From Candidatus Vecturithrix granuli (lineage in GTDB: Bacteria; Moduliflexota; Moduliflexia; Moduliflexales; Moduliflexaceae), in assembly GCA_000739535.1 (NCBI GenBank), contig DF820466.1, positions 496,754-560,753 of the forward strand: 64,000 nt of DNA. Direction: 5' to 3'. The notes beneath the pieces were generated by a model. The model searched no databases and had not been told where the DNA came from. It saw only the letters and a program-made list of their open reading frames with translations. Of this stretch, positions 140 through 28,516 are shown one piece after another; position 1 is the stretch's first letter, and every line of letters starts with the position of its first letter. The position numbers and the translations under genes were made by a program.

Positions 140-338
140 TTATTCATCAGCATTGAACTTGGTGGAGTCCATCTTCAAGGCGGCCTCCACCTCAGCAGGT
201 GTCAATACCAGTGAATAATCCATGCCATTTCCGGCGCACCTGTTCATCAGCGAGAACGCCTGCACTCTCTTGAAGTAACAGTATTGGAGGAGCTCAGGCG
301 TGTTCGTCACTTCGTCCAGAGCAGGTATCGAGCGGCAT
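140..338 (-). other. Open frame without start, possible gene remnant
   Basis: Reading on the minus strand in a different frame from the protease gene, an open stretch of about 65 codons runs across the end of that gene (it overlaps the LLWTK codons) and stops with TAA. It contains segments such as PELLQYCYFKRVQAF and LTPAEVEAALKMDS that look like real protein. There is no ATG with a ribosome binding site, and I recognise no family. It may be the 3' remnant of a decayed gene, or chance. The remaining bases 1-139 show nothing I can name. Confidence 0.2.
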
Positions 339-1791
339 CGACAAATGCCTTAATGCAGACGTTGGTATTGGCAAAATCAGGGTTAGCCGTCAGGTCTGTC
401 CAGGATGCGCCATCTGGAGACATGTAACTTTCGCCGGCATGCGCGGTCGCTGCTGAAGCATCCCCGACCGGAAATTCCAGTGAGAGAGGCCAGGTATTAG
501 CGGGAGGAGCCGTAAATTTGATCGCAACCGCAAACCCATTCCCGGCATGCAGCGCGACCGGCTGATTCAGTTTGATCGTGTGATAGCCCGCATACGTGAC
601 CGTTCCAGTTTGGGTGGCGCCTAACTGATCGCTAAACGAGGAACTTGTTGAGGAATCAGTCTTTGTATCATAGATCCGAATCTCGTATGCCATATTCGAA
701 GCTCCGACCGAAAGCCCTACTGCCGTCAAGATACCATCTTGTGTGGGCGTAAACCAGTTAGCTCCCCAGACAATATTCGAACCATAGGAGACAGCACCCG
801 TGTTGCCAAGAGGATCGTACATATAGATTTTCTGAAATGCCAGGGAAGCGTCCGCTTTTTCGTCGAACGCCGCCAGTTCCCCAAAGGCAAGTTTGGTATC
901 AGCATACGCTATGTAAAAATAACCGGCCTCGCCCCACCCAGTCCCCCAACTGTTGCGGATGATAAAGGCTCCCGGAGTTGGGGCTACGGTCAGTTTCGTA
1001 TCATCCCAACCCACAATCACTATTGCATGATTGCTACCTTCCGGGCCATTGTAGTAATAGGTGTAATTGCTGGCGTTGTAAGACGCACTCTCCCAATAGA
1101 ACGCCGAAGAGAGTGCCCCATAGGTCAGCAGCGCGGATTTGATATAGGCATTATCAGTTACACTGGATCGGACTGGAAGATACAAGATGTTATCTATGTA
1201 TCGGACCGGAGTACAGGTGGTGCAGAAAGTCGAGGTGGGAGAAGGATCATAGGGATCATCGGACTCGCTGATCGGACCATCAGAACGGGCAAGATACACC
1301 ACGGTCATTTGTGTATAGCCTCCACTACAGGGACCCAGGTCAAAGCCATGCCGGTGCTTCAAATTATCTTCCGAGAAATCGGGATTACTGTCCAGACCGA
1401 ATTTTTTCAAATGACTTTCCAGGCTACCATAGTTCGCAAACGCCCAACATGTCCCACAACTACCCTGATCCCTGATCGGTGAAAGGAGGCTGTCATTCTG
1501 ATTACCATCCCCATTGGGATCGCGCAGGTCATATTTCGGATCAGACGGAGACGCTTGCCTTTTGTCAGGAACATGGATTTCCGGTAATAGCGGAGAAGGG
1601 ATATACCCCAGCGCATGGCCTTCCTCATCCATGATCATTCTGCGTGGAGATTTCAGGTACTCTACAAAAGCGGGGTTCAACGGCGCCAATTGCGGCGTTT
1701 CTTGCGCATATCCAGGCGTGCTCAGTCCCCCGTTTAACAACATTCCCCCACCAATGACGCCCAGCAACACGACTATTTGAGTTCTATTCAT
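307..1791 (-). CDS. Secreted C1A papain-like cysteine protease with LLWTK C-terminal tag
   Basis: Predicted exported papain-family endopeptidase of 494 residues. A signal peptide ends near GYAQ (about residue 30). A short pro-region leads into the catalytic domain at about residue 87. Visible are the oxyanion Gln109 and nucleophile Cys115 in QGSCGTCWAF, His255 in SNHAIVIVGW and Asn280 in RNSWGTGWGEAGYFYIAY. Residues about 310-485 resemble the lectin-like beta domain often attached to bacterial C1 peptidases. The protein ends ARYLLWTK, the tag shared by 16 genes of this island. The ATG follows an AAAGGAG site. It is the last gene of the minus-strand island. Activity is well supported by the intact triad; substrate is unknown. 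Confidence 0.93.
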   Translation of the reverse strand: MNRTQIVVLLGVIGGGMLLNGGLSTPGYAQETPQLAPLNPAFVEYLKSPRRMIMDEEGHALGYIPSPLLPEIHVPDKRQASPSDPKYDLRDPNGDGNQNDSLLSPIRDQGSCGTCWAFANYGSLESHLKKFGLDSNPDFSEDNLKHRHGFDLGPCSGGYTQMTVVYLARSDGPISESDDPYDPSPTSTFCTTCTPVRYIDNILYLPVRSSVTDNAYIKSALLTYGALSSAFYWESASYNASNYTYYYNGPEGSNHAIVIVGWDDTKLTVAPTPGAFIIRNSWGTGWGEAGYFYIAYADTKLAFGELAAFDEKADASLAFQKIYMYDPLGNTGAVSYGSNIVWGANWFTPTQDGILTAVGLSVGASNMAYEIRIYDTKTDSSTSSSFSDQLGATQTGTVTYAGYHTIKLNQPVALHAGNGFAVAIKFTAPPANTWPLSLEFPVGDASAATAHAGESYMSPDGASWTDLTANPDFANTNVCIKAFVDAARYLLWTK

Positions 1792-1867
1792 TATAGTACT
1801 CCTTTTGTTTGCGTATTCTCGGCCAATTAAATCTTCATCAAACGAAACTACAAACAGCGCGGCTTCT

Positions 1868-3603: not shown

Positions 3604-4407
3604 TCACCTGGTCCAGAGAAGGTAAGCGTTTGATTGGCCGAGGGAGGAGGTAGCCTGAAGCATATCATACGCGCCCGAACTTCCTGCCGGAAGATAGTCC
3701 GCCAACACGATCCACTGGAGATTCGTCCACACAACGCCGCTGAGGGTTGGCGTAGTGATGGTAAATGTTCTGGTCGCTCCATTGGCTAAATCTGACGTGA
3801 TGGCTTGCGAAACGGCAGCCCGAACGTACCGCTTCGTCAATCGTTCTGTTGCGCCGGGCGCGGTGGTAAACATTTCATATACAATCGCCCACACCGTTGC
3901 CGAGTTACTGGTACCAAGGGTCACGCCGCTCTGGTTAGTCAGTTGTACGCTAAACTGGAGTGTATCGCCAATCCGCTGGCTGCTGGCAGTGAGCGTGGCC
4001 TGCGCCGGCCGCGCTAAGGAAGCGTCAACCATCGCACTATATTTTGTGGCAAAATCTTCATACCCGTTACTGATAGCATTCCCGCTGTCGATCATGACCA
4101 AAGGTAAGGAGACCACACCTCCTGTAGAAGCTGCCCACCACCGACTCTGGCGACTGCTAAAGAGACTACTATCCACATCATACTCTATAAACACAACAGG
4201 TTGGTTCGCATATTTAGCGACTAATGTATCTTCGATGGCCAAACTGGCCTGCTGGCTATTCCATCAGGTGTATCGCAAAAAGGCTTCAAACACGACGAAG
4301 CGCTACCCCTGCGCGAATGAGGACTCCACAGCTACGCCAAACAACAGCACGATGATCACACATAAGCCAGCAATCATGCTCATCCACCACTGGATGCGAG
4401 TCATCAT
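3604..4407 (-). pseudogene. Thioredoxin-like secreted LLWTK-tagged protein, interrupted by UAG and UGA
   Basis: Read from the ATGATG at 4407 (AGGAGG nearby), the frame encodes a clean signal peptide (MMTRIQWWMSMIAGL..., ending SSFAQG). It then meets TAG at 4303-4305, continues RFVVFEAFLRYT, meets TGA at 4264-4266, and stays open for 219 codons to NAYLLWTR. The part after the signal peptide resembles thioredoxin-like proteins in which a strand (VVFEAF) precedes TCxxC and then a helix and a second strand (VVFIEYDVD). The UGA falls where the first Cys of CxxC is expected, giving T-[UGA]-W-N-S. The downstream half is a beta-rich domain. Simplest reading is a pseudogene with two nonsense changes. 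Selenocysteine at the UGA is an alternative, but it does not explain the UAG, since UAG is an ordinary stop elsewhere in the window. Confidence 0.75.
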
Positions 4408-4545
4408 TATTTCCTCCTCTACAATCCCATGAATGTCAGACCTTGCACTTTTGAACTCCATCGAAACATGGCGACTGGTCACATTGATGCCGAGCGCGGA
4501 TTTCTTAAATCAAGGTAATTTTCTATCAGATCACTATAGCCACCC

Positions 4546-4738
4546 AATAAAGAACGGAATGATTCTTGCAAGAAAAGCATGTATGCCCGCGAAACACGCA
4601 AAACACGCGAAAAATCTCTTGGCTCTGCTGTAGCGTTTTTTGAGAAACAACGAACGTTTCATCGCCTCATGTTCGCGTATTTCGCGTGTTTCGCGGGCTA
4701 TGTCACTGTCCATACAAGAACCGTTCCGTTCTTCATTG
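4546..4738. repeat. Long inverted repeat
   Basis: Two arms of about 70 bases face each other across about 50 bases. They share AAGAACGGAA, TTCTTG and CCCGCGAAACACGC in matching order on opposite strands, with scattered mismatches. Probably a decayed MITE or a large intergenic hairpin. No coding content recognised. Confidence 0.65.
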
Positions 4739-5086: not shown

Positions 5087-5091
5087 GGTTG

Positions 5092-6522
5092 TCATTTCGT
5101 CCAGAGGATGTAAGAATTGCCAGACTGTTCGATTGGTACGGCCTGATGCGCAATTGATCCGAGTGAAGCCTTCACCACCGCGGTGAAATACGACATGTTC
5201 AGATATTGCAATTTGTCGTTCTTGGTATGGTAGTAGGGGTTAAAATCATCGTCATCCTCAATCGCCCACAGGGCGGCATACCCAAACCCCCAAAACGAAG
5301 CATGATCACTGAAATCATATCCATTGCTGATGATGAGCGGCGTCAGGCTGCTGCTCAACCCATAAGTGTTAATCACCTGAACCAAAAGCTGAGCCAGGGC
5401 CAGATCGCCGGCATAGCCAGGGTTGGAAGGCAGGCGCGTATAGAGCCGAAAATCCGGTCCACCTTTGTTATCCCAGGCGATCATATCCAGGTTATACACG
5501 GCCACAATGTTTTGATTTGCATTATATACCGACTCGGCATACGCGTAGCTGCCAAGAAAATCTATCTCCTCGCCCGTAAAGAAAACAAAGCGCACAGTAC
5601 GTTCGAAGGTGTACGCACTCATCACATCGGCGGCGACCATCACTCCGGCCGCGCCGCTGGCATTGTCATCTGCTCCGGGCGCTAACCCGCTGGCAGGCAT
5701 ATCATCCAGGTGGGCAGTGATCAAGACAATTTCGCCGGGTCGGGTCGTTCCTCGCAGTTCCCCGATCACATTACGCCCCGAACTCTCATAATCATCATTA
5801 TTCCAGTTCTGGTACCTCACTGCCAGTCCCAACGCTTGCAGATGCTCATAGACATACTGGGTGGCCTTTTGGATCGGCGTGCCTGAATCTGTGTGGCGCG
5901 TCGTGATTGTATAAGACGCGCCGCCAATGATGGCTGGCGTTACGCCGCTTAGACGGCTGGTGTAAGCACTCAGCGTACTTTGCGTCACCTGATCAATCAG
6001 GTTTTGAATCAATGGGAGCGGGGTAATGGCTTTAGTGCGGAGTCTTTCAGACACTCGCAGGATCATTGGCCGCTTCCGCAGCCACGCAATTTCGAACCCC
6101 AGATTGGCAAGCCGTTCCGCCTGAGATGGGGTGGCGCGGACAAGGAGGTACTTGCCATCATCGTACAAGACTGTCATAATCGTAACGGCTTGTTGCCGCG
6201 CCCCTTGCCGCCGTTCATAGGCCAGCAGATACCATTCATCCGGCTTCAATGCCGCTACAGCATCCACAATGCGATAGGATAACTGCCGTTGCTGCAACGC
6301 CTGTTCCGAGACAAGCGTTAAGACATACTCCTGACCGGCGGCATCCAGCAGATGTGCATGGATCGGAATCCCAAGCTCCGCAATCGCCCCTGTGACATCC
6401 ACCTGCGCCAACATGCGAGTCTCTTCCGTCGGCTCGTCTGCCGCAGCCCAGGAGGTCAGGAGCAGAAGAGCAAGCATTCCAAACAAGACTCTCGAGCGCG
6501 TCCATCTTATGAATTGCACCAT
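5092..6522 (-). CDS. Secreted M28 family zinc aminopeptidase with LLWTK-type tag
   Basis: Predicted exported co-catalytic zinc peptidase of 476 residues. The chosen ATG (MVQFIRWT...) has an AGAAAGGAGAG site and begins a good signal peptide ending at SWAAADEP; the longer upstream frame is not plausible coding. Residues about 35-180 form an N-terminal pro/beta domain. The M28 domain follows, with zinc ligands His271 (ITAHLDD), Asp285 (PGADDNASG), Glu318-Glu319 (FTGEEIDFLGS), Asp346 (YNLDMIAWD) and His407 (SDHASFWGFG). It ends NSYILWTK. It sits between the trypsin gene and the disrupted thioredoxin-like gene, all on one strand. Zinc site complete, so active enzyme likely. Confidence 0.93.
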   Translation of the reverse strand: MVQFIRWTRSRVLFGMLALLLLTSWAAADEPTEETRMLAQVDVTGAIAELGIPIHAHLLDAAGQEYVLTLVSEQALQQRQLSYRIVDAVAALKPDEWYLLAYERRQGARQQAVTIMTVLYDDGKYLLVRATPSQAERLANLGFEIAWLRKRPMILRVSERLRTKAITPLPLIQNLIDQVTQSTLSAYTSRLSGVTPAIIGGASYTITTRHTDSGTPIQKATQYVYEHLQALGLAVRYQNWNNDDYESSGRNVIGELRGTTRPGEIVLITAHLDDMPASGLAPGADDNASGAAGVMVAADVMSAYTFERTVRFVFFTGEEIDFLGSYAYAESVYNANQNIVAVYNLDMIAWDNKGGPDFRLYTRLPSNPGYAGDLALAQLLVQVINTYGLSSSLTPLIISNGYDFSDHASFWGFGYAALWAIEDDDDFNPYYHTKNDKLQYLNMSYFTAVVKASLGSIAHQAVPIEQSGNSYILWTK

Positions 6523-6613: not shown

Positions 6614-7450
6614 TTACTTCGTCCAGAGGAAATATGAATTGGTAGAAGTTGCAGGCACATAGGAGGAAATCCAGGCAGCATAGTTCGAAACTCTGGTATA
6701 AACGCCGTAATATCCTGCCAGAGCGCACCCATCGCCCCAACTGACCACCCCTACCTGCACGTAACTTCCAGAACCAGTTGACACCATTAACGGCCCGCCG
6801 CTGTCTCCCTCGCAGGAATCTTTGCCGCCTGCCGCATACCCGGCGCAAAACATACTGCTTGTAATCTCTCCAGGGTATGCGGCGCTGCACGCGGCGTCGG
6901 AGACGATGGGCACATCTACCTGCATGAGCAGATCAGGATAACTCTCTCCGGGATACTCCGTATTCCCCCAGCCGATGACCGTCGAATTGGTGCCGGCCGC
7001 ATTATACGCGCTGCTGGTATTCCAGGCAATCGGAGTCTGCGCTGAGGCCTGCGCTAATTCCAACAGCGCAATATCATTATCAATCGTGGAACTATTATAA
7101 CTGGGATGCGCAATCTGTTGGATCACCGCAATGCGTTCATAGGTTGATGCGGAAGCCGTAAGGTCGTTCGTGCCAAGCACCACATCAATGTTCCCACCGA
7201 GACAATGGGCGGCCGTCAGCACCCAATTCGCATGAATGAGCGCGCCCCCGCAGAATTGCCCGTAGGGACGCGGATCCTCGTAGCGATCTACTAGTGCGGC
7301 CATCCAGGGCCAGGCACCGTCAGCCGCCACCACCCCTCCGATAATCCGAGTCTGGGCCAACGCCCTCTCCGGCATCCCTCCTGTCCACATCCCAACAGCA
7401 CTCATCAGGATTATCGTCACGACTACCTTACAAAACCACCTTATAGTCAT
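6614..7450 (-). CDS. Secreted S1 trypsin-like serine protease with LLWTK-type tag
   Basis: Chymotrypsin-fold protease of 278 residues. Start at MTIRWFCK, directly after TCAGGAGAAT. Signal peptide to about residue 33 (ALAQ), then the activation site TR|IIGG at residue 35/36. Catalytic triad His82 (TAAHCLGG), Asp126 (DNDIALLEL) and Ser217 (CEGDSGGP). Cysteine pairs around the His and Ser loops are present, which suggests disulphides formed outside the cytoplasm. The Asp six residues before the nucleophile (DSCEGDSGG) points to trypsin-like Lys/Arg specificity. The catalytic domain ends at its usual C-terminal helix (YAAWISSYV), and the tag TNSYFLWTK is simply appended. This makes the tag boundary especially clear. 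Confidence 0.95.
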   Translation of the reverse strand: MTIRWFCKVVVTIILMSAVGMWTGGMPERALAQTRIIGGVVAADGAWPWMAALVDRYEDPRPYGQFCGGALIHANWVLTAAHCLGGNIDVVLGTNDLTASASTYERIAVIQQIAHPSYNSSTIDNDIALLELAQASAQTPIAWNTSSAYNAAGTNSTVIGWGNTEYPGESYPDLLMQVDVPIVSDAACSAAYPGEITSSMFCAGYAAGGKDSCEGDSGGPLMVSTGSGSYVQVGVVSWGDGCALAGYYGVYTRVSNYAAWISSYVPATSTNSYFLWTK

Positions 7451-7714: not shown

Positions 7715-9451
7715 TCACTTTGTCCACAATAGATAACTTATTGGGGAACGGGGACCGTAGAGCGGCAACGGCTGGCCGTACTCAAAGGCACCCAGATCGG
7801 GTGCGCCGGAAAGGGAAAAGGCATCATTGAGATTGGAGATCGCCGCGCCGGCGTTAATCTCCGGCGCGCCCGCAACCAGCCGCAAGTCCCGGCTGCCTGG
7901 CGCAACCGGCTGGTTCCACGCGGCTGGCAGGGCGGCGTTCACTACATGACCAAACGCCGCCGCGACGCCATGCTCCTCGACTCCATCGGGCAAATCCAGC
8001 AGAGTATTGTACTGGGTACCATTCCACTTGAAATAGGGCAGGCTGGCGCGGGTGGTGCCCCAGGCGTTGTAATCAAAATCGCGGAATCCTTCGTCAGGGG
8101 CCGTGATAAACTCAAAGGCATAGTCAGTGCCTAAAAAAAGGTTGTTCCGAAAAACCGCATTGCGCCACATTGAGCCATCATCGCCGTGACCGTCGTCAAG
8201 CTTGGCGCTCGTGTTGTGAATAACGTAGAAGCCTGTCGTCTGGTTGTGCATCTTGATCGGCGTGCTTTCCAGATTGAACAACTCATTGCGGAAGATGTAG
8301 GCCGGACCGCCACGAATAGGCTGGACGCTCACGCCCATCCGCGCATTCATCACCCGGTTACGCCAGACCCGCACGTTGGCCTGATTGTAGTCTATCTCGA
8401 TGCCGTCATCTACACAATAGGCAATGTCATTGCCGTAAATATCGTTGCCGAAAGATGACCCGGTAAAAGGCTGGACCGAGACCCCGTCGCCAAAGTTTTG
8501 TACCGTGTTGTGGCAGACCACATTGCCGTAGCCGCGCAGATCAATGCCTCGTTCCTCTGGAATATCGCTGCCGGGCCAGGTTGTGCGTCCCGTGATCACA
8601 TTATCGCATACGGTCTGGTTGCCTTCCAGAGCGCCATCACGCCGGTTGTAGATGCCAAAACCGATGTTCTGGATGACATTTCGGCGGATCACGATATCGT
8701 GGCTGTTTTGGGCATCTACGCCCCAATATCCGTTCTGAATGGTCAGCCCTGCGAGAATCACATAGGCAATGCTCTGGCCGTACTCGCCTAACGTGACGAC
8801 GCCTCGATCCGTGTCGTTCCCATCTATGATCGCTGAACCGATGGCTGGTCCCTGGAACACAATTGGGTGTCCGGCAGTACCGCTCGTGAGCAGTTGAAAC
8901 GAGCTATATGTACCGGCCGCGACGTGGAAAATATCTCCAGGCTGCGCATTGTTCGCGGCCGTCTGTAATCCTCGAAAGGGATTGCCGCTGCTGCCGTCGC
9001 CGCCGCTGCTGCCAGGGATGATGTAACGATGAGTGCCAGCAGGATCAGGCTGGGGTTCAGTACGCGTGGCAGCCGTGACGATTTGGGTTGCGCTCCCCCC
9101 GTCAGGATCGCTCAAGGTCAGGCGGAGTTGGTAGATTGTCCCGCTTGCAAGGAACAACGCACTGGCGGCCCAGTAATTCAAACCGAGCGCCGAACCGTTC
9201 ACAATAATCGTCGGATACGCCCGCATGGCCGGTGCGCCAGACTTCCAGACACTTTCGCCCTGCTTGCGGAATTCGACGGTCATGGAACTATCTAAGTCAT
9301 CATCGCCTGTAATCCACCACAGCACGCCAATATGGTTGAAGGTTGCATCAGTGCGAATTGTACCGGGAACAACGGCTGTCGCTGCAAAACTCACAGCACT
9401 GGTCAGCATGAATATGATGAGTCCGATCATATAGGTCAACAATGTTTTCAT
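7715..9451 (-). CDS. Secreted right-handed beta-helix protein with LLWTK tag
   Basis: 578 residues from MKTLLTYMIG (GGGGAGAATAGT upstream). Signal peptide to about SFAAT. Residues about 30-150 look like a fibronectin-type/beta-sandwich domain ending ATRTEPQPDPAGTHRY. This is followed by a pectate-lyase-like parallel beta-helix (GDIFHVAAGTYSS, then repeating coils such as DIVIRRNVIQNIGFGIYN and NDIYGNDIAYCVDDGIEIDYN). Such folds are polysaccharide lyases, epimerases or binding proteins; I cannot point to catalytic residues. It ends ISYLLWTK. The same reading frame is open for 39 more codons upstream through a repeated mini-ORF module starting MRGHSPGIMK behind its own AGGAG, so an N-terminally extended or coupled product is possible. 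Confidence 0.85.
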   Translation of the reverse strand: MKTLLTYMIGLIIFMLTSAVSFAATAVVPGTIRTDATFNHIGVLWWITGDDDLDSSMTVEFRKQGESVWKSGAPAMRAYPTIIVNGSALGLNYWAASALFLASGTIYQLRLTLSDPDGGSATQIVTAATRTEPQPDPAGTHRYIIPGSSGGDGSSGNPFRGLQTAANNAQPGDIFHVAAGTYSSFQLLTSGTAGHPIVFQGPAIGSAIIDGNDTDRGVVTLGEYGQSIAYVILAGLTIQNGYWGVDAQNSHDIVIRRNVIQNIGFGIYNRRDGALEGNQTVCDNVITGRTTWPGSDIPEERGIDLRGYGNVVCHNTVQNFGDGVSVQPFTGSSFGNDIYGNDIAYCVDDGIEIDYNQANVRVWRNRVMNARMGVSVQPIRGGPAYIFRNELFNLESTPIKMHNQTTGFYVIHNTSAKLDDGHGDDGSMWRNAVFRNNLFLGTDYAFEFITAPDEGFRDFDYNAWGTTRASLPYFKWNGTQYNTLLDLPDGVEEHGVAAAFGHVVNAALPAAWNQPVAPGSRDLRLVAGAPEINAGAAISNLNDAFSLSGAPDLGAFEYGQPLPLYGPRSPISYLLWTK

Positions 9452-10717: not shown

Positions 10718-10743
10718 GATTGTTTTACCTCCATGAATTGTCG

Positions 10744-10821
10744 TTACAGCATTATGCAAAACTGTTGACCTGATACCTGTCACAAAAATCAGGTTTCTTG
10801 AAGAAACCTGGTTTTTAACGG
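10744..10821. terminator. Bidirectional hairpin terminator inside a dispersed repeat (family G copy 1)
   Basis: ACCAGGTTTCTT / AAGAAACCTGGT stem with T-runs on both sides, just downstream of the SGNH-like gene on the minus strand. The surrounding 75 bases (TTACAGCATTATGCA through CCTGATACCTGTCAC) recur almost unchanged at 40.95 kb, so the terminator travels with a repeat. Confidence 0.75.
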
Positions 10822-17904: not shown

Positions 17905-19449
17905 TCACTTTGTCCAGAGTAAATAGGAGTCTGAGAGATACCCGGAATCAAAGAACACATCATAATACGTATCACGAAAATCTGTCCAGGCGATGCCAGC
18001 TTCCTGAGCTTCAGGTTTGGTCGGATTGGCGCAAACAGCCGGCCTGGGATACCCCGTGCTGGCAGAAGCCTCTTCATTAACCGTCACAAGAGTCGTCCAA
18101 CCACTTGAGAAGCTCGTCGGTATCTGAGTGTATCGAACGTCATATTCCGGATATCGCGTGAAAGCGGCATGGAAGTTTCCCAGTGAATCACTCCGGCTAA
18201 GCTCCACGCCGTCTTCGTCAGAAGTAGACGATGTTGACAGACCCCAGCCTTTGCTCCAGCTTGTTCCGCCATTGGTTGTATAGGCGTAATTGATGTCCAG
18301 ATCCCCCGAATTCTGAAAATCCCTGGTATAGGCTACAAGCACCGAATTATTGCCAAACGCGGCGGACACGCGCGGATGATATTCCTTCCCCGAACCCCCA
18401 CTGGAAAGCGAGACGGGCGTTCCCCAGCTATTCCCCGAATTGGTACTCTGTGTCACCCAGTTCCGAATCTCCGATAAGGCCGGCTTCTCGAAGACCACAA
18501 ACAAGTCCCCATTGGAAGTGCCATACGTAATATCCGGTCTTGCCTCCCAACTGGAGTTTTCAGATCCGCCCGTGATGTTCGTGGGAGTACTCCAGGTGTT
18601 GCCGAAATCCGTGCTGCGGCTAAAATACACCGGATAGTAATCAACCGACTTTAGAGCGTATGTAACATACACATAGTGAAGTATTGTAAAATCAGGGTAA
18701 TCTGTACATATTTCAGGGTAGATGTCGTTGGTCGTGATAGAGGTGGTGGCAACAGTCTCAGCAATCCATGCCTCGCCAACCGTATTAATCCGGAAAACGT
18801 CAACCCACTTTGAACTACTTGTCGTTCCTTCCATGGCGACATAGACGAATTTTTCAGTGCTGCTTTTTTCAGCATACGCGATTGACGGATGCCTTGAAGT
18901 GGTACCGCCAGTTGTCAGCCAGAACCAGTATGTCCAACTCTGTCCCCCATCCGTAGAGCGATAGATGTACACCTGACCGTTTGTGTTATTTTGAACGGCG
19001 ACATAGAGGACGCCAGCAGGAGTGCTCACCATGGAAGGTTCCCGGACATCAATGCTGGAGCTATTAATCCGGACATCACCGGTTGCCCACTTGCGAAGAT
19101 CCTTCGATTCGACCCTGTCCGTAACAAGACCTGCCTGCTGTTGGTGCTCGTCCTCCTCCGGCAACGAGATTCTGGAAGTCATGCCGTGCAATGCGTCCAA
19201 TGTGACCTGAAGTTCCCTGGCTGTTTCGCTATCGCCAGCCTTGCGGGCCGTTCTCAGATCGTTAAGCAGCGTCTTTTCTTCAGACCTTAACGCGATTGGC
19301 GGGACCTGCACAATACTGGGTTTCTCAACCTTCTGACCAGCCCCTGGCCCCCCGGCCTTTCCAGTACCAAGATCCTTATCCTGGGCGAAGGACATGCCGC
19401 CGCCGACAAACAAACAACACAAACATACATATACAACGAATCGTTTCAT
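17905..19449 (-). CDS. Secreted sialidase-fold (BNR/Asp-box) protein with LLWTK tag
   Basis: 514 residues; ATG behind TAGGAGGAATAAATT. Signal peptide to about MSFAQD. Residues about 30-115 are a charged helical segment (LRSEEKTLLNDLRTARKAGDSETARELQVTLDAL) absent from the paralogue downstream. A propeller follows with Asp-boxes STDGGQSW, STDFGNTW, STNSGNSW and TTNGGTSW. Probably binds or trims extracellular glycans; no full sialidase active site recognised. It ends YLSDSYLLWTK. It has its own promoter and cGAMP-type riboswitch leader, and probably cotranscribes the paralogue through the family C spacer. Confidence 0.88.
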   Translation of the reverse strand: MKRFVVYVCLCCLFVGGGMSFAQDKDLGTGKAGGPGAGQKVEKPSIVQVPPIALRSEEKTLLNDLRTARKAGDSETARELQVTLDALHGMTSRISLPEEDEHQQQAGLVTDRVESKDLRKWATGDVRINSSSIDVREPSMVSTPAGVLYVAVQNNTNGQVYIYRSTDGGQSWTYWFWLTTGGTTSRHPSIAYAEKSSTEKFVYVAMEGTTSSSKWVDVFRINTVGEAWIAETVATTSITTNDIYPEICTDYPDFTILHYVYVTYALKSVDYYPVYFSRSTDFGNTWSTPTNITGGSENSSWEARPDITYGTSNGDLFVVFEKPALSEIRNWVTQSTNSGNSWGTPVSLSSGGSGKEYHPRVSAAFGNNSVLVAYTRDFQNSGDLDINYAYTTNGGTSWSKGWGLSTSSTSDEDGVELSRSDSLGNFHAAFTRYPEYDVRYTQIPTSFSSGWTTLVTVNEEASASTGYPRPAVCANPTKPEAQEAGIAWTDFRDTYYDVFFDSGYLSDSYLLWTK

Positions 19450-20174: not shown

Positions 20175-21527
20175 TCACTTCGTCCAGAGCAGGTAGGCAT
20201 TACCGGATCTGAATTCATACGCCCCAATATCGTACGCGCCCGCTTGCGGTCGCGCTTGCCCGTCAAAATCAACTGTTGGAGCGTCTGTCGCTGCACCCTG
20301 GTTGATGGCCGGTGAAGTAGATTGGAGATAAAAATCAGCGTCCGTAGGATTAATAAATAGCGGGTCTGCTTCTACCACCGCGGTGCCATCATTTTCGGCA
20401 TATCCTTCGACCCCCCAGACAAGATTATGGTCACTCGTTACTGACTCTGGATATTCATGTTGAATTTGAAACTGGGCATTCTCACTGCAAATATTGTTAC
20501 GAATCACGATATTCTCAACATGGGCGACATCCGTATTCTCTAGCGATATTCCGCCGCCCCAACCAGGCTCAGGATTGCCATTCTGGTAACATGTGTTATT
20601 GATCATCGTCACATTCTTAACGGGTTGGGGTAGTTCAGAAGGTTCGTGACTGAGGCAGATGCCGGAATAATAGTTCTGGTACGCCAGATTATTATAGATT
20701 CTGATATTTTCAAGCAGACCGCCCTGTTCAGATGCCAGGGCAAAGCCATTGTTGCCGGTATCATGCACGCGATTTTGATAGAGGTCAAGATGATAGGTGT
20801 GCTGATCATGAGCGTCAACGTAGATCCCGACCCGCGTGACGTCGTGGACATGATTCCGATAGATTTTTCCATCATGGGCTCCCTGCTTGGCACATATACC
20901 CTCTTTATAACCATGATGCACATGATTATTTTTGACCTCAAAAAATCCGGTTTGAGCAATGCTAATACATTCCTGCCATCCGCCGCTGCCCGCCTGATTC
21001 ACCTCATTCCCGTCAATTACAATATTTGTGCTCTCCCATACCCCGATCCCGGAAGACCAGGTATGGGATGTGTAATTCTTTTCGATGGTAATATAGTCAG
21101 AATTTCTGACCATGATACCAGCATTATCATTATAAAAACCGGCATTTATGACCCGTAAGCCAGACACTTTGAGATAGCTTTTATTAGCAATGTGAAACAC
21201 ACCATATAAATCATCGGGTAATGTGATTCCGCTGCCGTCAATCGTGACGGTCTCCCCCGGATACGCCGCATAGACAATATATTGCCCGCTGCGGCCTGAG
21301 TTTTGGGGCGTCACCTGTTCCGAGTACGTTCCGGCCCTGATATACACCGTATCCCCGGCGACTAAGGTTTGCGCTGCTTTTGTGATGGTTCGCCACGGCT
21401 TCGCCAATGTGCCAGGGTTTGAATTATTGCCTCCCGGTGCGACATAATAAGTAGTTCCGAAAGCTGCTATTGGGAGCAGAAGCGACCAGACCAACATGAT
21501 CGCGCTGAAAAAACCTTTACCTTTCAT
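20175..21527 (-). CDS. Secreted right-handed beta-helix protein with LLWTK tag
   Basis: 450 residues. Signal peptide MKGKGFFSAIMLVWSLLLPIAAFG is followed at once by TYYVAPGGNNSNPGTLAKPWRTITKAAQ, the DUF1565-type cap of many parallel beta-helix proteins. Beta-helix coils follow (DTVYIRAGTYSEQ, YITIEKNYTSHTWSSGIGVWES, KIYRNHVHDVTRVGIYV). The terminal INPTDADFYLQSTSPAINQGAA...DIGAYEF block is characteristic of this family. Likely a polysaccharide-active or cell-surface binding protein; no catalytic residues assigned. It ends GNAYLLWTK. The ribosome site (AGCAGGTGT) is weak. Confidence 0.9.
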   Translation of the reverse strand: MKGKGFFSAIMLVWSLLLPIAAFGTTYYVAPGGNNSNPGTLAKPWRTITKAAQTLVAGDTVYIRAGTYSEQVTPQNSGRSGQYIVYAAYPGETVTIDGSGITLPDDLYGVFHIANKSYLKVSGLRVINAGFYNDNAGIMVRNSDYITIEKNYTSHTWSSGIGVWESTNIVIDGNEVNQAGSGGWQECISIAQTGFFEVKNNHVHHGYKEGICAKQGAHDGKIYRNHVHDVTRVGIYVDAHDQHTYHLDLYQNRVHDTGNNGFALASEQGGLLENIRIYNNLAYQNYYSGICLSHEPSELPQPVKNVTMINNTCYQNGNPEPGWGGGISLENTDVAHVENIVIRNNICSENAQFQIQHEYPESVTSDHNLVWGVEGYAENDGTAVVEADPLFINPTDADFYLQSTSPAINQGAATDAPTVDFDGQARPQAGAYDIGAYEFRSGNAYLLWTK

Positions 21528-21895: not shown

Positions 21896-22717
21896 TTAGC
21901 GCGTCCAGAGCAGATAAGAACGTGCGTTGAGCGACGTGAGATAGTCCACAAATTCCGTCCAATAACTTGGCAACGTGTCCCAGGGATTATCCATAATATC
22001 GTTGGTGACGTACACGTAGCCGATATGGCGAGCCATCGCCAGATCCACATGTGATTTCATCGTATTCACGTCCGGGGTCGTATGCACCAGCACGGCAAAA
22101 CGTTCTGCCGGATAGGCGCTGACATAGGAATCGGGCTCATAACCGGGCCATTCAGTGGAATAACTTTCGAAAATGATACTGATATCGCCAGCCGGGCGGC
22201 TGACATATTGCTCGATAATGTTTGTGCCCGGGTTCAACACCACAGTGTTAAAATTCGGCTTTGATCTGATATAATCGTACAATTCCCCATAGTAACTGAG
22301 TTTATCAAGCGTAGTAGCCGTTTCATCCAGGAAGATGCCATGAATATTGAAACATTGAACGTACAGATCAATATCCGCCTTCACATTATTAATCTGGCGA
22401 TCCCCATTCGTGGTAGGCACATAGCCCACAATCGTCACGCCGGCGTTCCGCAGCGTGTTCAGTCCCTGAATATAAGCGGCGTCGGGCGGACACGTTCCCG
22501 GTCCGCTATTGGGGTTAATGACTGCCGTCACCGGCAATTTGGAAGCAGCAGTCGCCACGTCATTCCATCGATTGTCCGGGTAAATGTATAATGGAATGAG
22601 AATCTGAAGTTGCACCTTCGTTTGCGCCCGGGTTGTTATGGGTTGAATTATTGCCATACTCACCACGAATATAGACAGGAAAATCATGTAACGGTACGTG
22701 TGCCTGAGATGAATCAT
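21896..22717 (-). CDS. Secreted spherulin-4-like protein with LLWTR tag
   Basis: 273 residues; ATG after GAAAGGAGCAC. Signal peptide to about TTRAQ. The mature part is a TIM-barrel-like domain of the spherulation-specific family 4 type: LQILIPLYIYPDNRWNDV, AVINPNSGPG, TIVGYVPTTNGDR, IHGIFLDETA, VVLNPGTNI and ERFAVLVHTTP in the usual order. The acidic FLDE pair suggests relation to glycoside hydrolase-like barrels, but activity of this family is uncertain. It ends LNARSYLLWTR directly after the domain. A riboswitch leader lies about 80 bases upstream, and a MITE abuts the stop codon. Confidence 0.92.
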   Translation of the reverse strand: MIHLRHTYRYMIFLSIFVVSMAIIQPITTRAQTKVQLQILIPLYIYPDNRWNDVATAASKLPVTAVINPNSGPGTCPPDAAYIQGLNTLRNAGVTIVGYVPTTNGDRQINNVKADIDLYVQCFNIHGIFLDETATTLDKLSYYGELYDYIRSKPNFNTVVLNPGTNIIEQYVSRPAGDISIIFESYSTEWPGYEPDSYVSAYPAERFAVLVHTTPDVNTMKSHVDLAMARHIGYVYVTNDIMDNPWDTLPSYWTEFVDYLTSLNARSYLLWTR

Positions 22718-23184: not shown

Positions 23185-23267
23185 GCCATACTATCGGGGC
23201 TGTTCGTTGTCATGACTTCATGATAGAAAATTGATACCCTCCTTCTGGCGCACCGGATGGAACGCAG

Positions 23268-23293: not shown

Positions 23294-23301
23294 TGTGGGG
23301 A

Positions 23302-24411
23302 TCACTTCGTCCAGAGCAAATAGGAATTGTCCTCTGTCCATTTTGCAATAGGGTAGGCTGGCGTGGTGCCGGCCGTATTGAACGTCCCCCCGGCATAGAG
23401 CGAGCCGTCGCTCCCGACCGCCAATGCCCTGACCTCGCCGCTGCCTATGCCATCCCCCAGGGCCTCCCACGTTGTCCCGTTCCAGCGCGCCACTCGGTTC
23501 GCCGCCACGCCGCCGGCCGTGGTGAACTCTCCACCGACGTAAAGCTTGCCATCGCTCCCGGCCGCTAATGCATAAACTGTGCCATTCATGCCGGTTCCCA
23601 GGGCTTGCCAGGCAGTTCCGCTCCAGCGCGCCACTCGATTCACCGTCACACCCCCGGCCGTGATGAACTTTCCACCGGCGTAAAGTAGGCCGTCGCTTCC
23701 GATCGCCAATGCCGTGACTTCGTCGTTCATGCCGCTCCCCATGGCTTGCCATGCACTCCCAGTCCATCGCGCCACTCGGTTCACTGCCACACCGCTAGCT
23801 GTGGTAAAGTACCCTCCGGCGTAGAGCGTCCCGCTTCCGACTGCCAACGCATAGACGTCGCTGTCCATGCCGGTTCCCAGAGCCTGCCACGTACTCGTAC
23901 TCGTATTCCAGCGCGCCACTCGGTTTGCCGCCACGCCTCCAGCCGTGGTAAACGCCCCGCCGGCGTAAAGCGTGCCATCACTCCCGACCGCCAACGCATA
24001 GACCGTGCTGTTCACGCCATTCCCCAGAGTAGCCCAGGCACTCCCATTCCAGTAGGCTACCCTGAGCGCCGCCACGCTTCCAGCCGTGGTGAATGCCCCA
24101 CCAGCATAAAGCGTGCCGCTGCTGCCGGCCGCCAACGCAAAGACTGTGCTGGTCATGCCATTTCCCATGTTAGCCCAGGCACTCCCATTCCAGTAGGCTA
24201 CCCTGAGCGCCGCCACGCCGCCGGCTGTGGTAAAATACCCTCCGGCGTACAGCTTACCGTCGCTCCCAACCACCAACGCCCTGACCTGCTCATTCATGCC
24301 GCTCCCCAGGGCTTGCCAGGCAGCCTGAACCGGCGTCACCGCCAGGCTCCATCCCAAGCAAACCAGTATGATGATTCTATAAATACCCGTCTGATATCGT
24401 TGTGTATTCAT
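23302..24411 (-). CDS. Secreted propeller-repeat protein with LLWTK tag
   Basis: 369 residues; AACAGGAG precedes the ATG. Signal peptide to VQAAWQ. Then about seven repeats of about 46 residues of the form W-ALGSGMN-x-VRALAVGSDGKLYAGGYFTTAGGVAA-RVAYWNGSAW, a kelch-like or delta-60-like propeller. The DNA repeats are strongly conserved, so recent unit duplication or gene conversion is likely. Function is probably binding or structural. The last repeat runs straight into TEDNSYLLWTK. A possible degenerate riboswitch lies about 330 bases upstream. Confidence 0.88.
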   Translation of the reverse strand: MNTQRYQTGIYRIIILVCLGWSLAVTPVQAAWQALGSGMNEQVRALVVGSDGKLYAGGYFTTAGGVAALRVAYWNGSAWANMGNGMTSTVFALAAGSSGTLYAGGAFTTAGSVAALRVAYWNGSAWATLGNGVNSTVYALAVGSDGTLYAGGAFTTAGGVAANRVARWNTSTSTWQALGTGMDSDVYALAVGSGTLYAGGYFTTASGVAVNRVARWTGSAWQAMGSGMNDEVTALAIGSDGLLYAGGKFITAGGVTVNRVARWSGTAWQALGTGMNGTVYALAAGSDGKLYVGGEFTTAGGVAANRVARWNGTTWEALGDGIGSGEVRALAVGSDGSLYAGGTFNTAGTTPAYPIAKWTEDNSYLLWTK

Positions 24412-24930: not shown

Positions 24931-26013
24931 TCACTTTGTCCAGAGCAGGTAATTATCCATCGAACTAACCGGCTGTGCCGGATCAAAGACAATGACAGTA
25001 TACGTGAAACTTCTGGGACTTCCGCCAATCAGCACATTAGAAACGCTAACCGTATATGTGACTAAATGTTCTGATGGCCATGTGGCATCATCTGCCATAC
25101 CAAGAGGCCTCCAAACCAGTGTATTTTCTCCATAGCCTGTCACATACGTTTCCTGTGTCACCGAAATGGGACTTCCGTTTTGGGTCATTGTCACCGTAGC
25201 GCTTCCAAAATTAGCAGAAGCATAGGCAAATGACCATCGTGGATAGATGACCTGGTATGGGACATACCCAGGCGGGGGCCAGGCAACATACTCCTCTCGA
25301 GTGGTCGGTCGCGGGTCCCACGTATGCGAATCAAACACCCATAAGGCATTGGCTGCCCATTGATATCCGGGAGCGCTCGGAACATCTCCGGTTCCCATCA
25401 GTTGGGTTTGAGGATACAATACCCAACGCCGATGTCCGGCAGCAGAGTTACTGGAACCCTTGTCTTTCATGTAACCTGCGATATTATGGGTGAGGGTCGG
25501 ATAGCCCATCCTGATGTTTGATTTTCCGGCGCCTTCTTTGCCCTCCTCCGTATAACATGTCCATGAAGAGTCAGGGTCATGGCTTAGTTGGCCGTTAACA
25601 CTTATCATCAAAGCGGTTTGTTGATCTTTATTATTGTACTCATTGAAAAATGTCACTCCAGCAGGTATACCGGCCATGGCGCGAAAATAATTCAACTCCA
25701 GGAGCATAACATCCTTAAACGCCTGAGTGGTCGTCCCTGCCGTACATGAAACATGATTTCCCGTCCAGCCCATTGCGACCCCCTCAGAGCCGACATAGTG
25801 ACTGTAATACAGGTCTCTCGACGCTTGCCAGTTCTGAGGATTCACACTCAGGGCTCTAGTAGCGCGAGTGATGGTCCCTATATCTTCTTGCGGGAGTGGT
25901 GTTGCGGGAAATGTGGGGGGAATGCCTAACTGGATAGTCTCCGAAAAAGCTGTCAGAGAAAGCATACATAAACAACCGATCAGACAGAAGAGATGATACA
26001 TCATTTTTTTCAT
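24931..26013 (-). CDS. Secreted CAP (SCP/PR-1) domain protein with LLWTK tag
   Basis: 360 residues; GTCAGGAGG upstream of ATG. Signal peptide to about LTAFSET. The CAP superfamily domain covers about residues 80-215: LLELNYFRAMAGIPAGVTF (helix 1), QQTALMISVNGQLSHDPDSSW (first His), HNIAGYM and AAGHRRWVLYPQTQLMGTGDV (second His and strand). The C-terminal about 130 residues are beta-rich (WSFAYASANFGSATVTMTQNG; VTYTVSVSNVLIGGSPRSFTYTV), like the Ig-like part seen behind bacterial CAP domains. Role outside the cell unknown. It ends SMDNYLLWTK. Confidence 0.9.
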   Translation of the reverse strand: MKKMMYHLFCLIGCLCMLSLTAFSETIQLGIPPTFPATPLPQEDIGTITRATRALSVNPQNWQASRDLYYSHYVGSEGVAMGWTGNHVSCTAGTTTQAFKDVMLLELNYFRAMAGIPAGVTFFNEYNNKDQQTALMISVNGQLSHDPDSSWTCYTEEGKEGAGKSNIRMGYPTLTHNIAGYMKDKGSSNSAAGHRRWVLYPQTQLMGTGDVPSAPGYQWAANALWVFDSHTWDPRPTTREEYVAWPPPGYVPYQVIYPRWSFAYASANFGSATVTMTQNGSPISVTQETYVTGYGENTLVWRPLGMADDATWPSEHLVTYTVSVSNVLIGGSPRSFTYTVIVFDPAQPVSSMDNYLLWTK

Positions 26014-26128
26014 ATTACGAACCTCCTGACTTCGTTTATGTTACTCTTAAAAAAAGCTGATTCAGCTAAAGAAATGTGAAATCCTCCGGTACTGTTGTCA
26101 AGCAAAATTATGGAATTTATATGGGCAT

Positions 26129-28516
26129 TCAGCGCGTCCACAGCAAATAACTGGGCACGGCTTCAATATGCAAGTAATTAATATAGCCGATCTGGTCATA
26201 CTTGCCCATCTGGAGCGAGAGTTTTTTATCTTTCACGGTCACGGTTTTGGTGCGGGTAATCCAACTGTTATTGGTCGTTTCACTATTTATAAAGCTCACG
26301 CCCTCGATCACGATGGTATGGTATCTGGTGCTACTGCGCGACCCGACACAGACAGTCACATTGTACGTACCGTTTGGCAGATCGAATTCGAACACATCTT
26401 CACGGCTATAATCATTAATCACGGCGCTGCCCAACAGTTTTTTGGGCTCCGGATCGACCCATTGATCCCAGGCGGTATAAAAATTGGCCGACGGCACGTC
26501 CGCCGCCCGATACCAGCCATAACCCAGACTCGGACTATACAGAGTGTTGCCAATCTTCATATACGTGCGGCCGTTCACAATCAGCGGATTGTCGGTGGGC
26601 TGGCCGGCCGGATCTTGAAAATTGATGTAATAATTCCCCGGCGCGCCGTTTGATCTGGAATGTACGGACGCCGGCGCAATGTCCGGGATGGTCGCAATTT
26701 CGCCGCTGAGTTTGAGTCCGATCAGCCGCCGCAGGTTATACATGAACTCGCTGTCGCGCGTGTAAGAGGTTGGCATCCCAATCACTTTATTCACCTGCGC
26801 ATCGGCGGCATTGCTGACATCCGGCTGCGGTTGACCACCGTTTAATAAATAGAAATATTCATAATCTTCTAACCCGTCACGGATCATTTCTAAACGGATA
26901 GAAGGGACAAAACGGTGGCCGTTTGAGCCATAAGTAATATTGGTATTTGCCTCTGAAGGGGGATACATCAAGAACATTTCGCCGTTCTGGCCGTTCGGGT
27001 TCGGCGAAGTCCAGGGGTTACTGCTCCAGTCATTAAAGGTATAATAAGCGACGCCACGCACGCGGTATTTCCATAAGAACCAGCCCAGGAATTTGCCTTC
27101 AATGGCCGGATGATCGAGAGTAATCGAATTAAAGCGCGGCAAGTAGGTGCTTTTGAGAAAGTAAATCCAGCTTTCCTCGCTGTTATTTTTCAGGCGCTGC
27201 TGTGAGAGCGCCGGATTGAAATGCAGGCCAAAGTGCGGCAACCAGATGTCAATTTGATGATTATAGAAATAATTGGCGTGGTTGTAGATTTCCGGTTTGG
27301 GTTCCTCTGAAACCATCAATTTGAGATTAGGCGCGTATTGTTTCAGATAACGGGAATACCAGGCTACAGCGTCATAATCCGCCTGATTCTGGGGTTCATT
27401 CGCAAAATAGTAATACGCTCTACTCAGATAACCCTTTGCGTTGAGATAATTCTGCATGGCGGTCATATATTGGAACCATTTTTGATTGTAAGCAGAAGAG
27501 GGATTATTGCCGGTGTACCAGTCGCTCGTCGTGCGGGTCTGGCTGCAGAACGTGGAAGGGCGTTGATCGGCGGACGCATCGTTATTCTGAAAGGTCGCCG
27601 CCATAAACGAGGGAAAACCGACGCCGCCATTAAAAGGCTGAGTAAATGTGCTGCTCATCAGACCAGTCCCATTCAGATAGCGCGCCGCTGGTTGTTCAAA
27701 ACCCCAGATGCCTTCGTTGTCGGTGAAGGTGCCGCTACAGTTGTAGTCAATATACGGCGCGGCGCCATTCGTGGTCAATCCGCCTGACCAGAGTACCGAG
27801 CTGGGCACCAGCCGGTGGTCAATCAGAAATTTCTTCATTTTATCCACATACATCCAGTAGTCCGCACCTGTGCCAGAGACGCTATATTTCGCCAGAATTG
27901 TTTGATGGCTAAAATTCATCTGGGAATTAACGTGTAGTTGCGCCGGAAGTGTAAAATTGAACACGTGCAGGCGCACCGGAATAGCGACGCCGCCAATCGT
28001 TACATTCGTCGTATAATTCCCGGCAGCCGTGGTTGACGGCACATACACATTAATCCAAAAAGCGGTATTTTGACTGGCGGTTACACTGATGGAGGCTCCA
28101 CTCGCGATCGGCCATAAGGGATCGGGATTCGCACCGGTCTTCCCAAGATAATCCGTCGCTGTGGTGACATTGATGTATTTGACCTGGAATAATTCGGTGG
28201 TAATCCCTGTTCCAAAACTTCCCATCGTGACCGTCACATTCCCTGATGATGTTGGCTTCACGATGATTTGAAACGGCTCGAATTCCCTTTTGGCGGCATA
28301 GACTTTGACAATTGAGCCAGTATCGGTGGGCACAGCGTCGGTCTTAAACACGCGCTCACTGGGCGGAGTTGTCCAGAACTGATACGCCGACGTAGATTGC
28401 GTGAGTTTGAAGGTATAATCTTCAGTCTGCGCATTGCCTGCGATTGGCCGCAGCAAGATGACAAGTACGCTCAATATGATAACATTGAACCTGTTGATGA
28501 TCATAGCGTTGTTCAT
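26129..28516 (-). CDS. Secreted DUF4091 glycoside-hydrolase-like protein with LLWTR tag
   Basis: 795 residues from MNNAMIINRFNV; the longer upstream frame lies in repeats. Signal peptide ends near IAGNAQ. About residues 35-200 are beta-sandwich (FEPFQIIVKPTSSGNVTVTM; AAGNYTTNVTIGGVAIPV). A TIM-barrel-like DUF4091-type domain follows (FANEPQNQADYDAVAWYSRYLKQYAPNLKLMVSEEPKPEIY; LGWFLWKYRVRGVAYYTFNDW). The C-terminal about 130 residues resemble a malectin/carbohydrate-binding module (FDLPNGTYNVTVCVGSRSS; HTIVIEGVSF). Likely acts on polysaccharide. It ends AVPSYLLWTR. First and largest gene of the tagged series. Confidence 0.87.
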   Translation of the reverse strand: MNNAMIINRFNVIILSVLVILLRPIAGNAQTEDYTFKLTQSTSAYQFWTTPPSERVFKTDAVPTDTGSIVKVYAAKREFEPFQIIVKPTSSGNVTVTMGSFGTGITTELFQVKYINVTTATDYLGKTGANPDPLWPIASGASISVTASQNTAFWINVYVPSTTAAGNYTTNVTIGGVAIPVRLHVFNFTLPAQLHVNSQMNFSHQTILAKYSVSGTGADYWMYVDKMKKFLIDHRLVPSSVLWSGGLTTNGAAPYIDYNCSGTFTDNEGIWGFEQPAARYLNGTGLMSSTFTQPFNGGVGFPSFMAATFQNNDASADQRPSTFCSQTRTTSDWYTGNNPSSAYNQKWFQYMTAMQNYLNAKGYLSRAYYYFANEPQNQADYDAVAWYSRYLKQYAPNLKLMVSEEPKPEIYNHANYFYNHQIDIWLPHFGLHFNPALSQQRLKNNSEESWIYFLKSTYLPRFNSITLDHPAIEGKFLGWFLWKYRVRGVAYYTFNDWSSNPWTSPNPNGQNGEMFLMYPPSEANTNITYGSNGHRFVPSIRLEMIRDGLEDYEYFYLLNGGQPQPDVSNAADAQVNKVIGMPTSYTRDSEFMYNLRRLIGLKLSGEIATIPDIAPASVHSRSNGAPGNYYINFQDPAGQPTDNPLIVNGRTYMKIGNTLYSPSLGYGWYRAADVPSANFYTAWDQWVDPEPKKLLGSAVINDYSREDVFEFDLPNGTYNVTVCVGSRSSTRYHTIVIEGVSFINSETTNNSWITRTKTVTVKDKKLSLQMGKYDQIGYINYLHIEAVPSYLLWTR

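What the first reader, a model, noticed from the sequence alone, without database searches (positions are those of the whole stretch)
307..28516. A shared C-terminal peptide (SYLLWTK-type) on sixteen unrelated secreted proteins
Sixteen consecutive signal-peptide-bearing genes of at least ten unrelated folds end exactly at the stop with [YHF]-[LIF]-L-W-[TM]-[KR]: ARYLLWTK, NAYLLWTR, NSYILWTK, NSYFLWTK, ISYLLWTK, NVYLLWTK, QAHLLWTK, NFFLLWTK, SSYLLWMK, ESYLLWTK, DSYLLWTK, NAYLLWTK, RSYLLWTR, NSYLLWTK, DNYLLWTK, PSYLLWTR. The second L and the W are invariant. Leu, Tyr, Thr, Lys and stop codons vary between genes, so selection acts on the peptide, not on a DNA repeat. In the trypsin it is plainly appended after the natural domain end. 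Known sorting signals (LPXTG, PEP-CTERM, GlyGly-CTERM, type IX C-terminal domains) are longer or include a membrane helix, and I know none like this. Inference: a minimal C-terminal address for a dedicated secretion, anchoring or assembly machine.
Basis: partly seen in the sequence, partly recalled or inferred. Interest (0 to 1): 0.95.

Follow-up and report, generated by a model that had tools for sequence, protein, structure and literature searches.

The report
Eight-residue export tag without membrane anchor
Forty-four proteins of unrelated kinds in one bacterial genome, most with a predicted export signal at the front, end in the same eight-residue peptide (consensus NSYLLWTK), which is likely an address label that a still unknown receptor would read to place them on or beyond the outer surface; unlike the known bacterial labels of this sort it has no membrane-spanning segment.

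Summary
All 16 window proteins end exactly in the motif. A profile of the tails finds 44 in the genome (11 of 21 contigs) and no true match in its three nearest held relatives; of 384 other genomes none has more than one match at E<=0.05. Of 26 codon-restricted matches in 84,980 species none was seen to end a frame of 100 aa. Information is confined to the last eight residues; codons vary. The tag follows the natural domain end and is predicted disordered in both models. Eight of eight trypsin orthologs (72-85% identity) keep it while linkers vary. Tagged genes are enriched in signal peptides. Homologs of two carriers bear dockerin, SLH or T9SS-type tails instead. Sortase and T9SS tails were not found; exosortase and secretins are shared with tag-less relatives. 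I read it as a minimal, transmembrane-free C-terminal address on Sec-exported proteins, likely bound by a surface receptor. Receptor and location are inferred; no machine was found. The 16 are not strictly consecutive, and one has a broken frame.

The parts
307..1791 (-). Papain-family peptidase (PF00112) with lectin-like domain (PF18560), signal peptide; tag ARYLLWTK at 307-333 with stop
   Evidence: residues 490-494 of 494 are the only segment of 3 or more residues with pLDDT<50
3604..4242 (-). Broken gene: open frame with tag NAYLLWTR at 3604-3630; signal-peptide-like segment lies upstream behind two in-frame stops
5092..6522 (-). Peptidase M28 (PF04389), signal peptide; tag NSYILWTK at 5092-5118
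6614..7450 (-). Trypsin (PF00089), signal peptide; tag NSYFLWTK at 6614-6640, 17 residues from the domain-model end to the C-terminus
   Evidence: 8 orthologs keep the tag
7715..9451 (-). Beta-helix-like protein (weak NosD match, below cut-off), signal peptide; tag ISYLLWTK at 7715-7741
9740..10783 (-). No Pfam match; signal-peptide-like segment after an internal start (by eye); tag NVYLLWTK at 9740-9766
10840..11733 (-). No Pfam match, signal peptide; tag QAHLLWTK at 10840-10866
12097..14235 (-). DUF7948 plus SBBP beta-propeller repeats; signal-peptide-like N-terminus (by eye; failed the score); tag NFFLLWTK at 12097-12123
14640..15935 (-). Glycoside hydrolase family 8 (PF01270), signal peptide; tag SSYLLWMK at 14640-14666
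16084..17472 (-). BNR-repeat protein, signal peptide; tag ESYLLWTK at 16084-16110
17905..19449 (-). BNR-repeat protein, signal peptide; tag DSYLLWTK at 17905-17931
20175..21527 (-). Protein with choice-of-anchor Q domain (NF041518), signal peptide; tag NAYLLWTK at 20175-20201, right after the domain
21896..22717 (-). Spherulin4-family protein (PF12138), signal peptide; tag RSYLLWTR at 21896-21922
23302..24411 (-). Beta-propeller (DUF5122), signal peptide; tag NSYLLWTK at 23302-23328
24931..26013 (-). CAP-domain protein (PF00188), signal peptide; tag DNYLLWTK at 24931-24957
26129..28504 (-). GH123-like protein (PF13320), signal peptide; tag PSYLLWTR at 26129-26155

Best explanation
The last eight residues, x-[SA]-Y-L-L-W-T-[KR] ending at the free carboxyl end, are likely an uncleaved address tag that a dedicated but unidentified receptor in the outer envelope would bind after Sec export, moving the tagged proteins to, or holding them at, the cell surface. 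Shown: the tag is exactly terminal in 44 of 44 cases, unrelated protein families share nothing else there, in ten carriers it follows the natural domain end closely, it carries no transmembrane helix, it is predicted disordered in the two models made, and it is kept in orthologs from other lineages. Inferred: that a receptor reads it, that the free carboxylate and the invariant Leu-Trp just before the last two residues form the contact (the side chain of the last residue varies among K, R, Q and E, but the spacing does not), and that the destination is the outer surface. The logic would be that of KDEL or the peroxisomal SKL signal (recalled): a short soluble C-terminal peptide read by a receptor, here on bacterial exported enzymes and adhesin-like proteins.
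For: Genome-wide: 44 profile matches in G000 at E<=0.062, 0 in G001 and G003 even at E<=10, and 2 in G002 at E 0.6-0.7 with an internal stop each; all 44 end at a stop. Information content 2.6-4.0 bits at positions -7 to -1, 0.97 at -8, at most 0.61 further upstream, in 43 tails. Signal peptides: 32 of 38 tagged ORFs against 43 of 233 untagged ORFs from 13 sampled stretches, same score and threshold, Fisher p=3e-15; restricted to ORFs of 200 aa or more, to lessen spurious frames, 31 of 34 against 35 of 150, p=1e-13. By eye 38 of 44; the other 6 are frames without a complete N-terminus in view. Appended: domain models end 11-25 residues before the C-terminus in ten carriers; in others the last match ends further upstream. 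pLDDT<50 at 490-494 of 494 in the papain model and at 268-278 of 278 in the weaker trypsin model. Two carriers end in choice-of-anchor D and two in choice-of-anchor Q domains (one near the cut-off), and a fifth contains choice-of-anchor D stretches; NCBI uses these names for domains before varying C-terminal anchors (recalled). Of the 119 listed homologs of the papain carrier, some end in dockerin (P0093, P0096), T9SS-type (P0052, P0059) or SLH (P0094) tails; of the 119 listed for the trypsin carrier, some in SLH (P0206, P0242) or dockerin-type (P0230) tails. Conservation: 8 of 8 trypsin orthologs at 72-85% identity keep LLWT[KRE] with linkers of different length; a relative of another carrier, 74% identical overall, keeps it (P0002). 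The same-family trypsin in G001 is instead lipoprotein-like (LSAC) without tag. The other five trypsin-family hits in G000 are not at tag places.
Against: No receptor or transporter was identified, and no gene family recurs specifically near tag loci. No location or proteomic data exist. Retention, secretion and assembly cannot be told apart from sequence. The tag is known from one genome and a few metagenome relatives, so phylogenetic profiling could not be done. None of the 119 other listed papain homologs (57% identity or less) has the tag, so its conservation is shown for two carriers only. G000 has 10.75% estimated contamination, although the tag lies on 11 contigs, one of which (C15) also carries ribosomal-protein genes by eye. 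Signal peptides were scored with a home-made rule on mechanical ORFs. P0124 ends in E, so a basic last residue is not essential.
Confidence: 0.55

Rival explanations
1. The tag is the targeting element for a general outer-membrane secretion channel (a type II-like secretin) and the proteins are released into the medium rather than held.
For: Carriers are hydrolases and repeat proteins typical of secreted proteins; G000 has two secretins.
Against: The same number of secretins is present in G001-G003, which lack the tag; one of the two G000 loci looks like a type IV pilus locus (pilM-Q-like order, by eye). Known type II substrates carry no shared short linear tag (recalled).
Confidence: 0.15
2. 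The tag is a short cleavable signal processed by the resident exosortase or another intramembrane protease, a stripped-down relative of PEP-CTERM.
For: G000 has one exosortase and ordinary PEP-CTERM proteins over the NCBIfam cut-off, so C-terminal sorting by that enzyme is expected there.
Against: The tag has no transmembrane helix: highest 19-residue hydropathy in the last 40 residues is at most 1.14 in 43 carriers against 1.43-1.58 in three PEP-CTERM controls; no Pro-Glu-Pro; relatives with an exosortase lack the tag.
Confidence: 0.1
3. The tail acts on its own, as a sticky interfacial peptide or as protection against carboxy-terminal proteases, with no receptor.
For: Aromatic and aliphatic core with a mostly basic end, predicted disordered.
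Against: Invariant Leu-Trp at fixed distance from the end in 43 of 43 tails is stricter than physical stickiness needs; seen in one lineage only.
Confidence: 0.12
4. Covalent attachment to peptidoglycan through a C-terminal lysine, as in Braun lipoprotein (recalled).
For: 32 of 43 tails end in lysine.
Against: 10 end in Arg and 1 in Gln and one ortholog ends in Glu; these have no epsilon-amino group.
Confidence: 0.04
5. A mobile or repeated DNA element that happens to encode the tail of genes it sits in.
For: Many copies in one genome and a large cluster.
Against: Codons and stops vary freely, information stops at residue -8, and the strongest shared upstream word occurs in 4 of 32 genes.
Confidence: 0.02

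Closest known systems
PEP-CTERM / exosortase
   Same: C-terminal signal on many otherwise unrelated proteins with signal peptides; present in the same genome
   Different: The new tag has no transmembrane helix and no PEP motif; 8 residues instead of the 24-position model
MYXO-CTERM / myxosortase (PMC11980579, abstract and introduction read)
   Same: Dozens of signal-peptide proteins, mostly predicted surface adhesins or hydrolases, in one lineage (35 in M. xanthus)
   Different: MYXO-CTERM is tripartite with an invariant cysteine and a helix; the new tag has neither
GlyGly-CTERM / rhombosortase (PMC3237569, abstract and one results section read)
   Same: Suffix added after variable spacers; homologs carry other tails; with several targets, these lie far from the enzyme gene
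   Different: Tripartite with helix; no matching tail model in the 10 tails scanned here
Type IX secretion C-terminal domains
   Same: Soluble C-terminal signal on Sec-exported proteins (recalled)
   Different: A domain (75-position model PF18962) rather than 8 residues; no such tail found in G000-G003
LPXTG / sortase
   Same: C-terminal anchoring signal
   Different: No sortase found in G000-G003; no LPXTG, helix or basic cluster
KDEL and SKL C-terminal signals of eukaryotes (recalled)
   Same: Short, soluble, exactly terminal peptide read by a receptor; the working analogy
   Different: Different sequence and cell type; no receptor known here

Membership tests
PEP-CTERM / exosortase | Transmembrane helix followed by basic residues | tested here: not met
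   Max 19-residue hydropathy at most 1.14 in the last 40 residues of 43 carriers; three PEP-CTERM controls 1.43-1.58
PEP-CTERM / exosortase | Match to NCBIfam PEP-CTERM models | tested here: not met
   10 tails (of 44) scanned at E up to 10: no PEP-CTERM match; two resident PEP-CTERM proteins match TIGR02595 above cut-off
PEP-CTERM / exosortase | Cognate exosortase in the genome | tested here: met
   One in G000, but also in the tag-less relatives G001-G003
LPXTG / sortase | Sortase gene | tested here: not met
   0 of 4 genomes; 3 of 14 control genomes positive
Type IX secretion CTD | Por_Secre_tail domain in the genome | tested here: not met
   0 of 4 genomes; 1 of 14 controls rings, below the cut-off
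GlyGly-CTERM / MYXO-CTERM | Tripartite tail with a membrane helix | tested here: not met
   No helix in 43 tails; no model match in 10 tails
GlyGly-CTERM / MYXO-CTERM | Rhombosortase or myxosortase gene | not tested
   No search spent on these enzymes
Braun-type lysine linkage | C-terminal lysine always present | tested here: not met
   Arg 10, Gln 1 of 43; Glu in P0124
C-terminal sorting signals in the wide sense | Shared tail on unrelated signal-peptide proteins | tested here: met
C-terminal sorting signals in the wide sense | Changes location of a passenger protein | not testable with these tools
   Needs cell biology

The most novel reading that the evidence does not exclude
A bacterial counterpart of KDEL/SKL sorting: a soluble eight-residue C-terminal peptide, with no membrane helix and no folded domain, is the sole ticket for a dedicated receptor-based surface or secretion pathway that handles dozens of exported proteins in one little-known lineage, alongside an ordinary PEP-CTERM system.
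Probability: 0.4. Interest if true: 0.92.

Novelty: categorically new. Interest (0 to 1): 0.82.

Why it matters
The bacterial C-terminal sorting signals named in the introduction of PMC11980579 (read) are tripartite, with a membrane helix; the type IX signal (recalled) is a domain. An eight-residue soluble tag on 44 proteins, most with predicted export signals, would mean an unrecognised receptor and a new route or anchor at the outer envelope. The tag is short enough to fuse to a passenger, so it is directly testable and could be a tool for surface display. No NCBIfam or Pfam model recognised it in the 10 tails scanned, so these proteins would not at present be annotated as one system.

Tried and rejected
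Chance or DNA repeat: rejected. Shared promoter or regulon: the strongest shared upstream word is a 12-mer in 4 of 32 upstream regions and 0 of 273 controls; nine carriers with uncertain or chance frames were left out of that count. Machine by neighbourhood: only two families recur within 5 kb of tags, each at 2 tag loci and also in random stretches. A VanZ-like gene abuts the window cluster, but by eye none stood out among the ORFs near other tag loci. A different tag in the same-family genome G001: about 0.59 Mb of 3.4 Mb fetched, 68 signal-peptide proteins without helix listed, no shared tail seen by eye, one PEP-CTERM-like end. Other lineages: 15 of 384 genomes other than G000 have one profile match each at E<=0.05, about what chance gives; in that capped call only 23 of 63 G000 candidates were scored. 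The DNA pattern gave 1 match in G042 and 2 in G012 among 58 other genomes; two of these three end in TGG, not a stop, and the third ends a 54-residue frame. Of the 26 genome contigs matches, 25 end frames of 7-96 residues; the frame of L083 runs 34 residues to the edge of the held stretch and is unresolved. Literature, listings only: 'LLWTK', 'YLLWTK' or 'SYLLWT' occur in 2 papers, whose titles concern norovirus polymerases and a plant; four other searches listed the known CTERM and sortase systems or unrelated work among the rows shown. Organism: unnamed; candidate phylum KSB3 is a guess from genome size and sparse kin (PMC4312070, passages seen), untested.

Rows dropped before counts: two short frames (L047:19704, L057:8061) were dropped from the 41 automatic carriers, giving the 39; the 43 add four from the stretches and leave out the frameshifted C14:547818. 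Searches hold 38 tagged ORFs because the ORF filter lost the others. One search also holds an earlier enrichment count (28 of 44 against 42 of 213, p=2e-8) in which a start-codon bonus was given to the untagged set only; redid it evenly. Other matches to loose patterns (e.g. C12:92734, C16:7185, C20:504779) end frames of 6-37 residues and were left out.


Full report
WHAT IS THERE. Sixteen minus-strand genes between 307 and 28504 end, directly before the stop, in the motif described. They are not strictly consecutive (an untagged M20-type peptidase gene, named by eye, lies at 1868-3244), and the one at 3604 has a broken frame with a signal-peptide-like segment behind two in-frame stops. They belong to at least ten families.

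HOW MANY. The genome (G000, 8.38 Mb, 21 contigs) gave 31 strict DNA matches against 0 reversed controls; looser patterns gave 40 against 2, 56 against 27 and 211 against 189. A profile of 43 tails then found 44 proteins at E<=0.062, on 11 contigs; 0 in G001 (same family), 0 in G003, and 2 matches at E 0.6-0.7 with an internal stop each in G002 (same order). All 44 end at a stop codon. Of 384 other genomes, 15 have a single match at E<=0.05, close to the number expected by chance, and none has two (the G000 count there is capped at 23 scored candidates). A codon-restricted DNA scan of the 84,980-species collection returned 26 stretches; 25 end frames of 7-96 residues, and one (L083) is cut by the edge of the held stretch after 34 residues. 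That scan may leave out the window's own genome and near kin, as its output says.

WHAT IS CONSERVED. In 43 tails, position -4 is always Leu and -3 always Trp; Tyr 38, Thr 41, Lys 32, Arg 10 and Gln 1 at their places. Information is 2.6-4.0 bits from -7 to -1, 0.97 at -8 and at most 0.61 upstream. Codons vary, with all three stops in use, so the peptide is selected, not the DNA. Eight metagenome orthologs of the window trypsin, 72-85% identical, all keep the tag although the linker before it differs in length; one ends in Glu. The remaining 111 of the 120 listed (of 7198 hits), at 57% identity or less, lack it. One other carrier has a relative, 88% identical over the last 40 residues and 74% overall, that keeps it. 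None of the 119 other listed homologs of the papain carrier, at 57% identity or less, has it.

ANATOMY. In ten carriers a domain model ends 11-25 residues before the C-terminus; in others the last match ends further upstream. In the AlphaFold model of the papain carrier (mean pLDDT 90.5) the only stretch of 3 or more residues below 50 is 490-494, inside the tag; in the weaker trypsin model (74.6) residues 268-278 are below 50, together with 21-41 and 169-172. No carrier tail has a helix-like hydropathy (at most 1.14 in 43; three PEP-CTERM controls 1.43-1.58). Signal peptides by a home-made score: 32 of 38 tagged ORFs against 43 of 233 untagged mechanical ORFs, p=3e-15; for ORFs of 200 aa or more 31 of 34 against 35 of 150, p=1e-13. 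By eye 38 of 44 tagged genes start with one; the six others are frames without a complete N-terminus in view.

WHY AN ADDRESS. Carriers are hydrolases, propellers, lectin-like and repeat proteins. Four end in NCBI choice-of-anchor D or Q domains (one near the cut-off) and a fifth contains choice-of-anchor D stretches. Some homologs of two carriers end in dockerin, SLH or T9SS-type tails, and the same-family trypsin in G001 has a lipoprotein-type N-terminus instead. This resembles the tail-swapping reported for GlyGly-CTERM (PMC3237569, section read). The five other trypsin-family hits of G000 are not at tag places; the two whose C-terminus was read reliably (L103, L113) end in PDZ-like sequence by eye.

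WHICH MACHINE. None identified. Sortase and T9SS tails were not found in four genomes. One exosortase and two secretins occur in G000, but the tag-less relatives have them too, and G000 also has real PEP-CTERM proteins. No gene family recurs specifically near tags. NCBIfam and Pfam have no model for the tag in the 10 tails scanned (two weak Pfam matches at E 0.05-0.08 look like chance). Rhombosortase and myxosortase genes were not searched for.

MECHANISM. Committed reading: Sec export, folding, then capture of the disordered tail by a receptor that reads Leu-Trp at a fixed distance from the free carboxyl end and transfers or holds the protein at the outer surface. Export is predicted; receptor and destination are inferred. 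Secretin-dependent release, passive stickiness, cleavage and Braun-type linkage are rivals in that order of weight.

NOVELTY. It works like known C-terminal sorting tags but fails a defining feature of each known family tested, hence 'categorically new' for the tag itself; the pathway remains hypothetical. In the held library the strings LLWTK, YLLWTK and SYLLWT occur only in two papers with unrelated titles (listing).

Noticed in passing
28826-30691 (minus strand): A VanZ-like gene directly follows a membrane transporter-like gene at the upstream edge of the tag cluster; possible relation to the system unknown.
   Followed up: partly
L176:13558-15120 and L190:15601-16242 (G000): Ordinary PEP-CTERM proteins coexist with the new tag in the same genome.
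   Followed up: yes
window 3604-4700, L174:8300-9866, L175:7954-9639: Several tagged genes have interrupted reading frames (stops or frame changes); decay or sequencing error cannot be told apart.
   Followed up: partly
L179:7273-11449 (G000): A large CSLREA/choice-of-anchor Q protein with partial similarity to rhombotarget A (below its cut-off) lacks the tag but is followed by a small tagged gene with the variant ending SFLLWSR.
   Followed up: no
L043:13325-17630; L054:9750-13032: Tagged genes also sit in small convergent pairs elsewhere in the genome.
   Followed up: no
upstream regions of 4 of 32 carriers: A repeated 12-mer AAGACAGCCGGG, absent from 273 control upstream regions; perhaps a dispersed repeat.
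   Followed up: no
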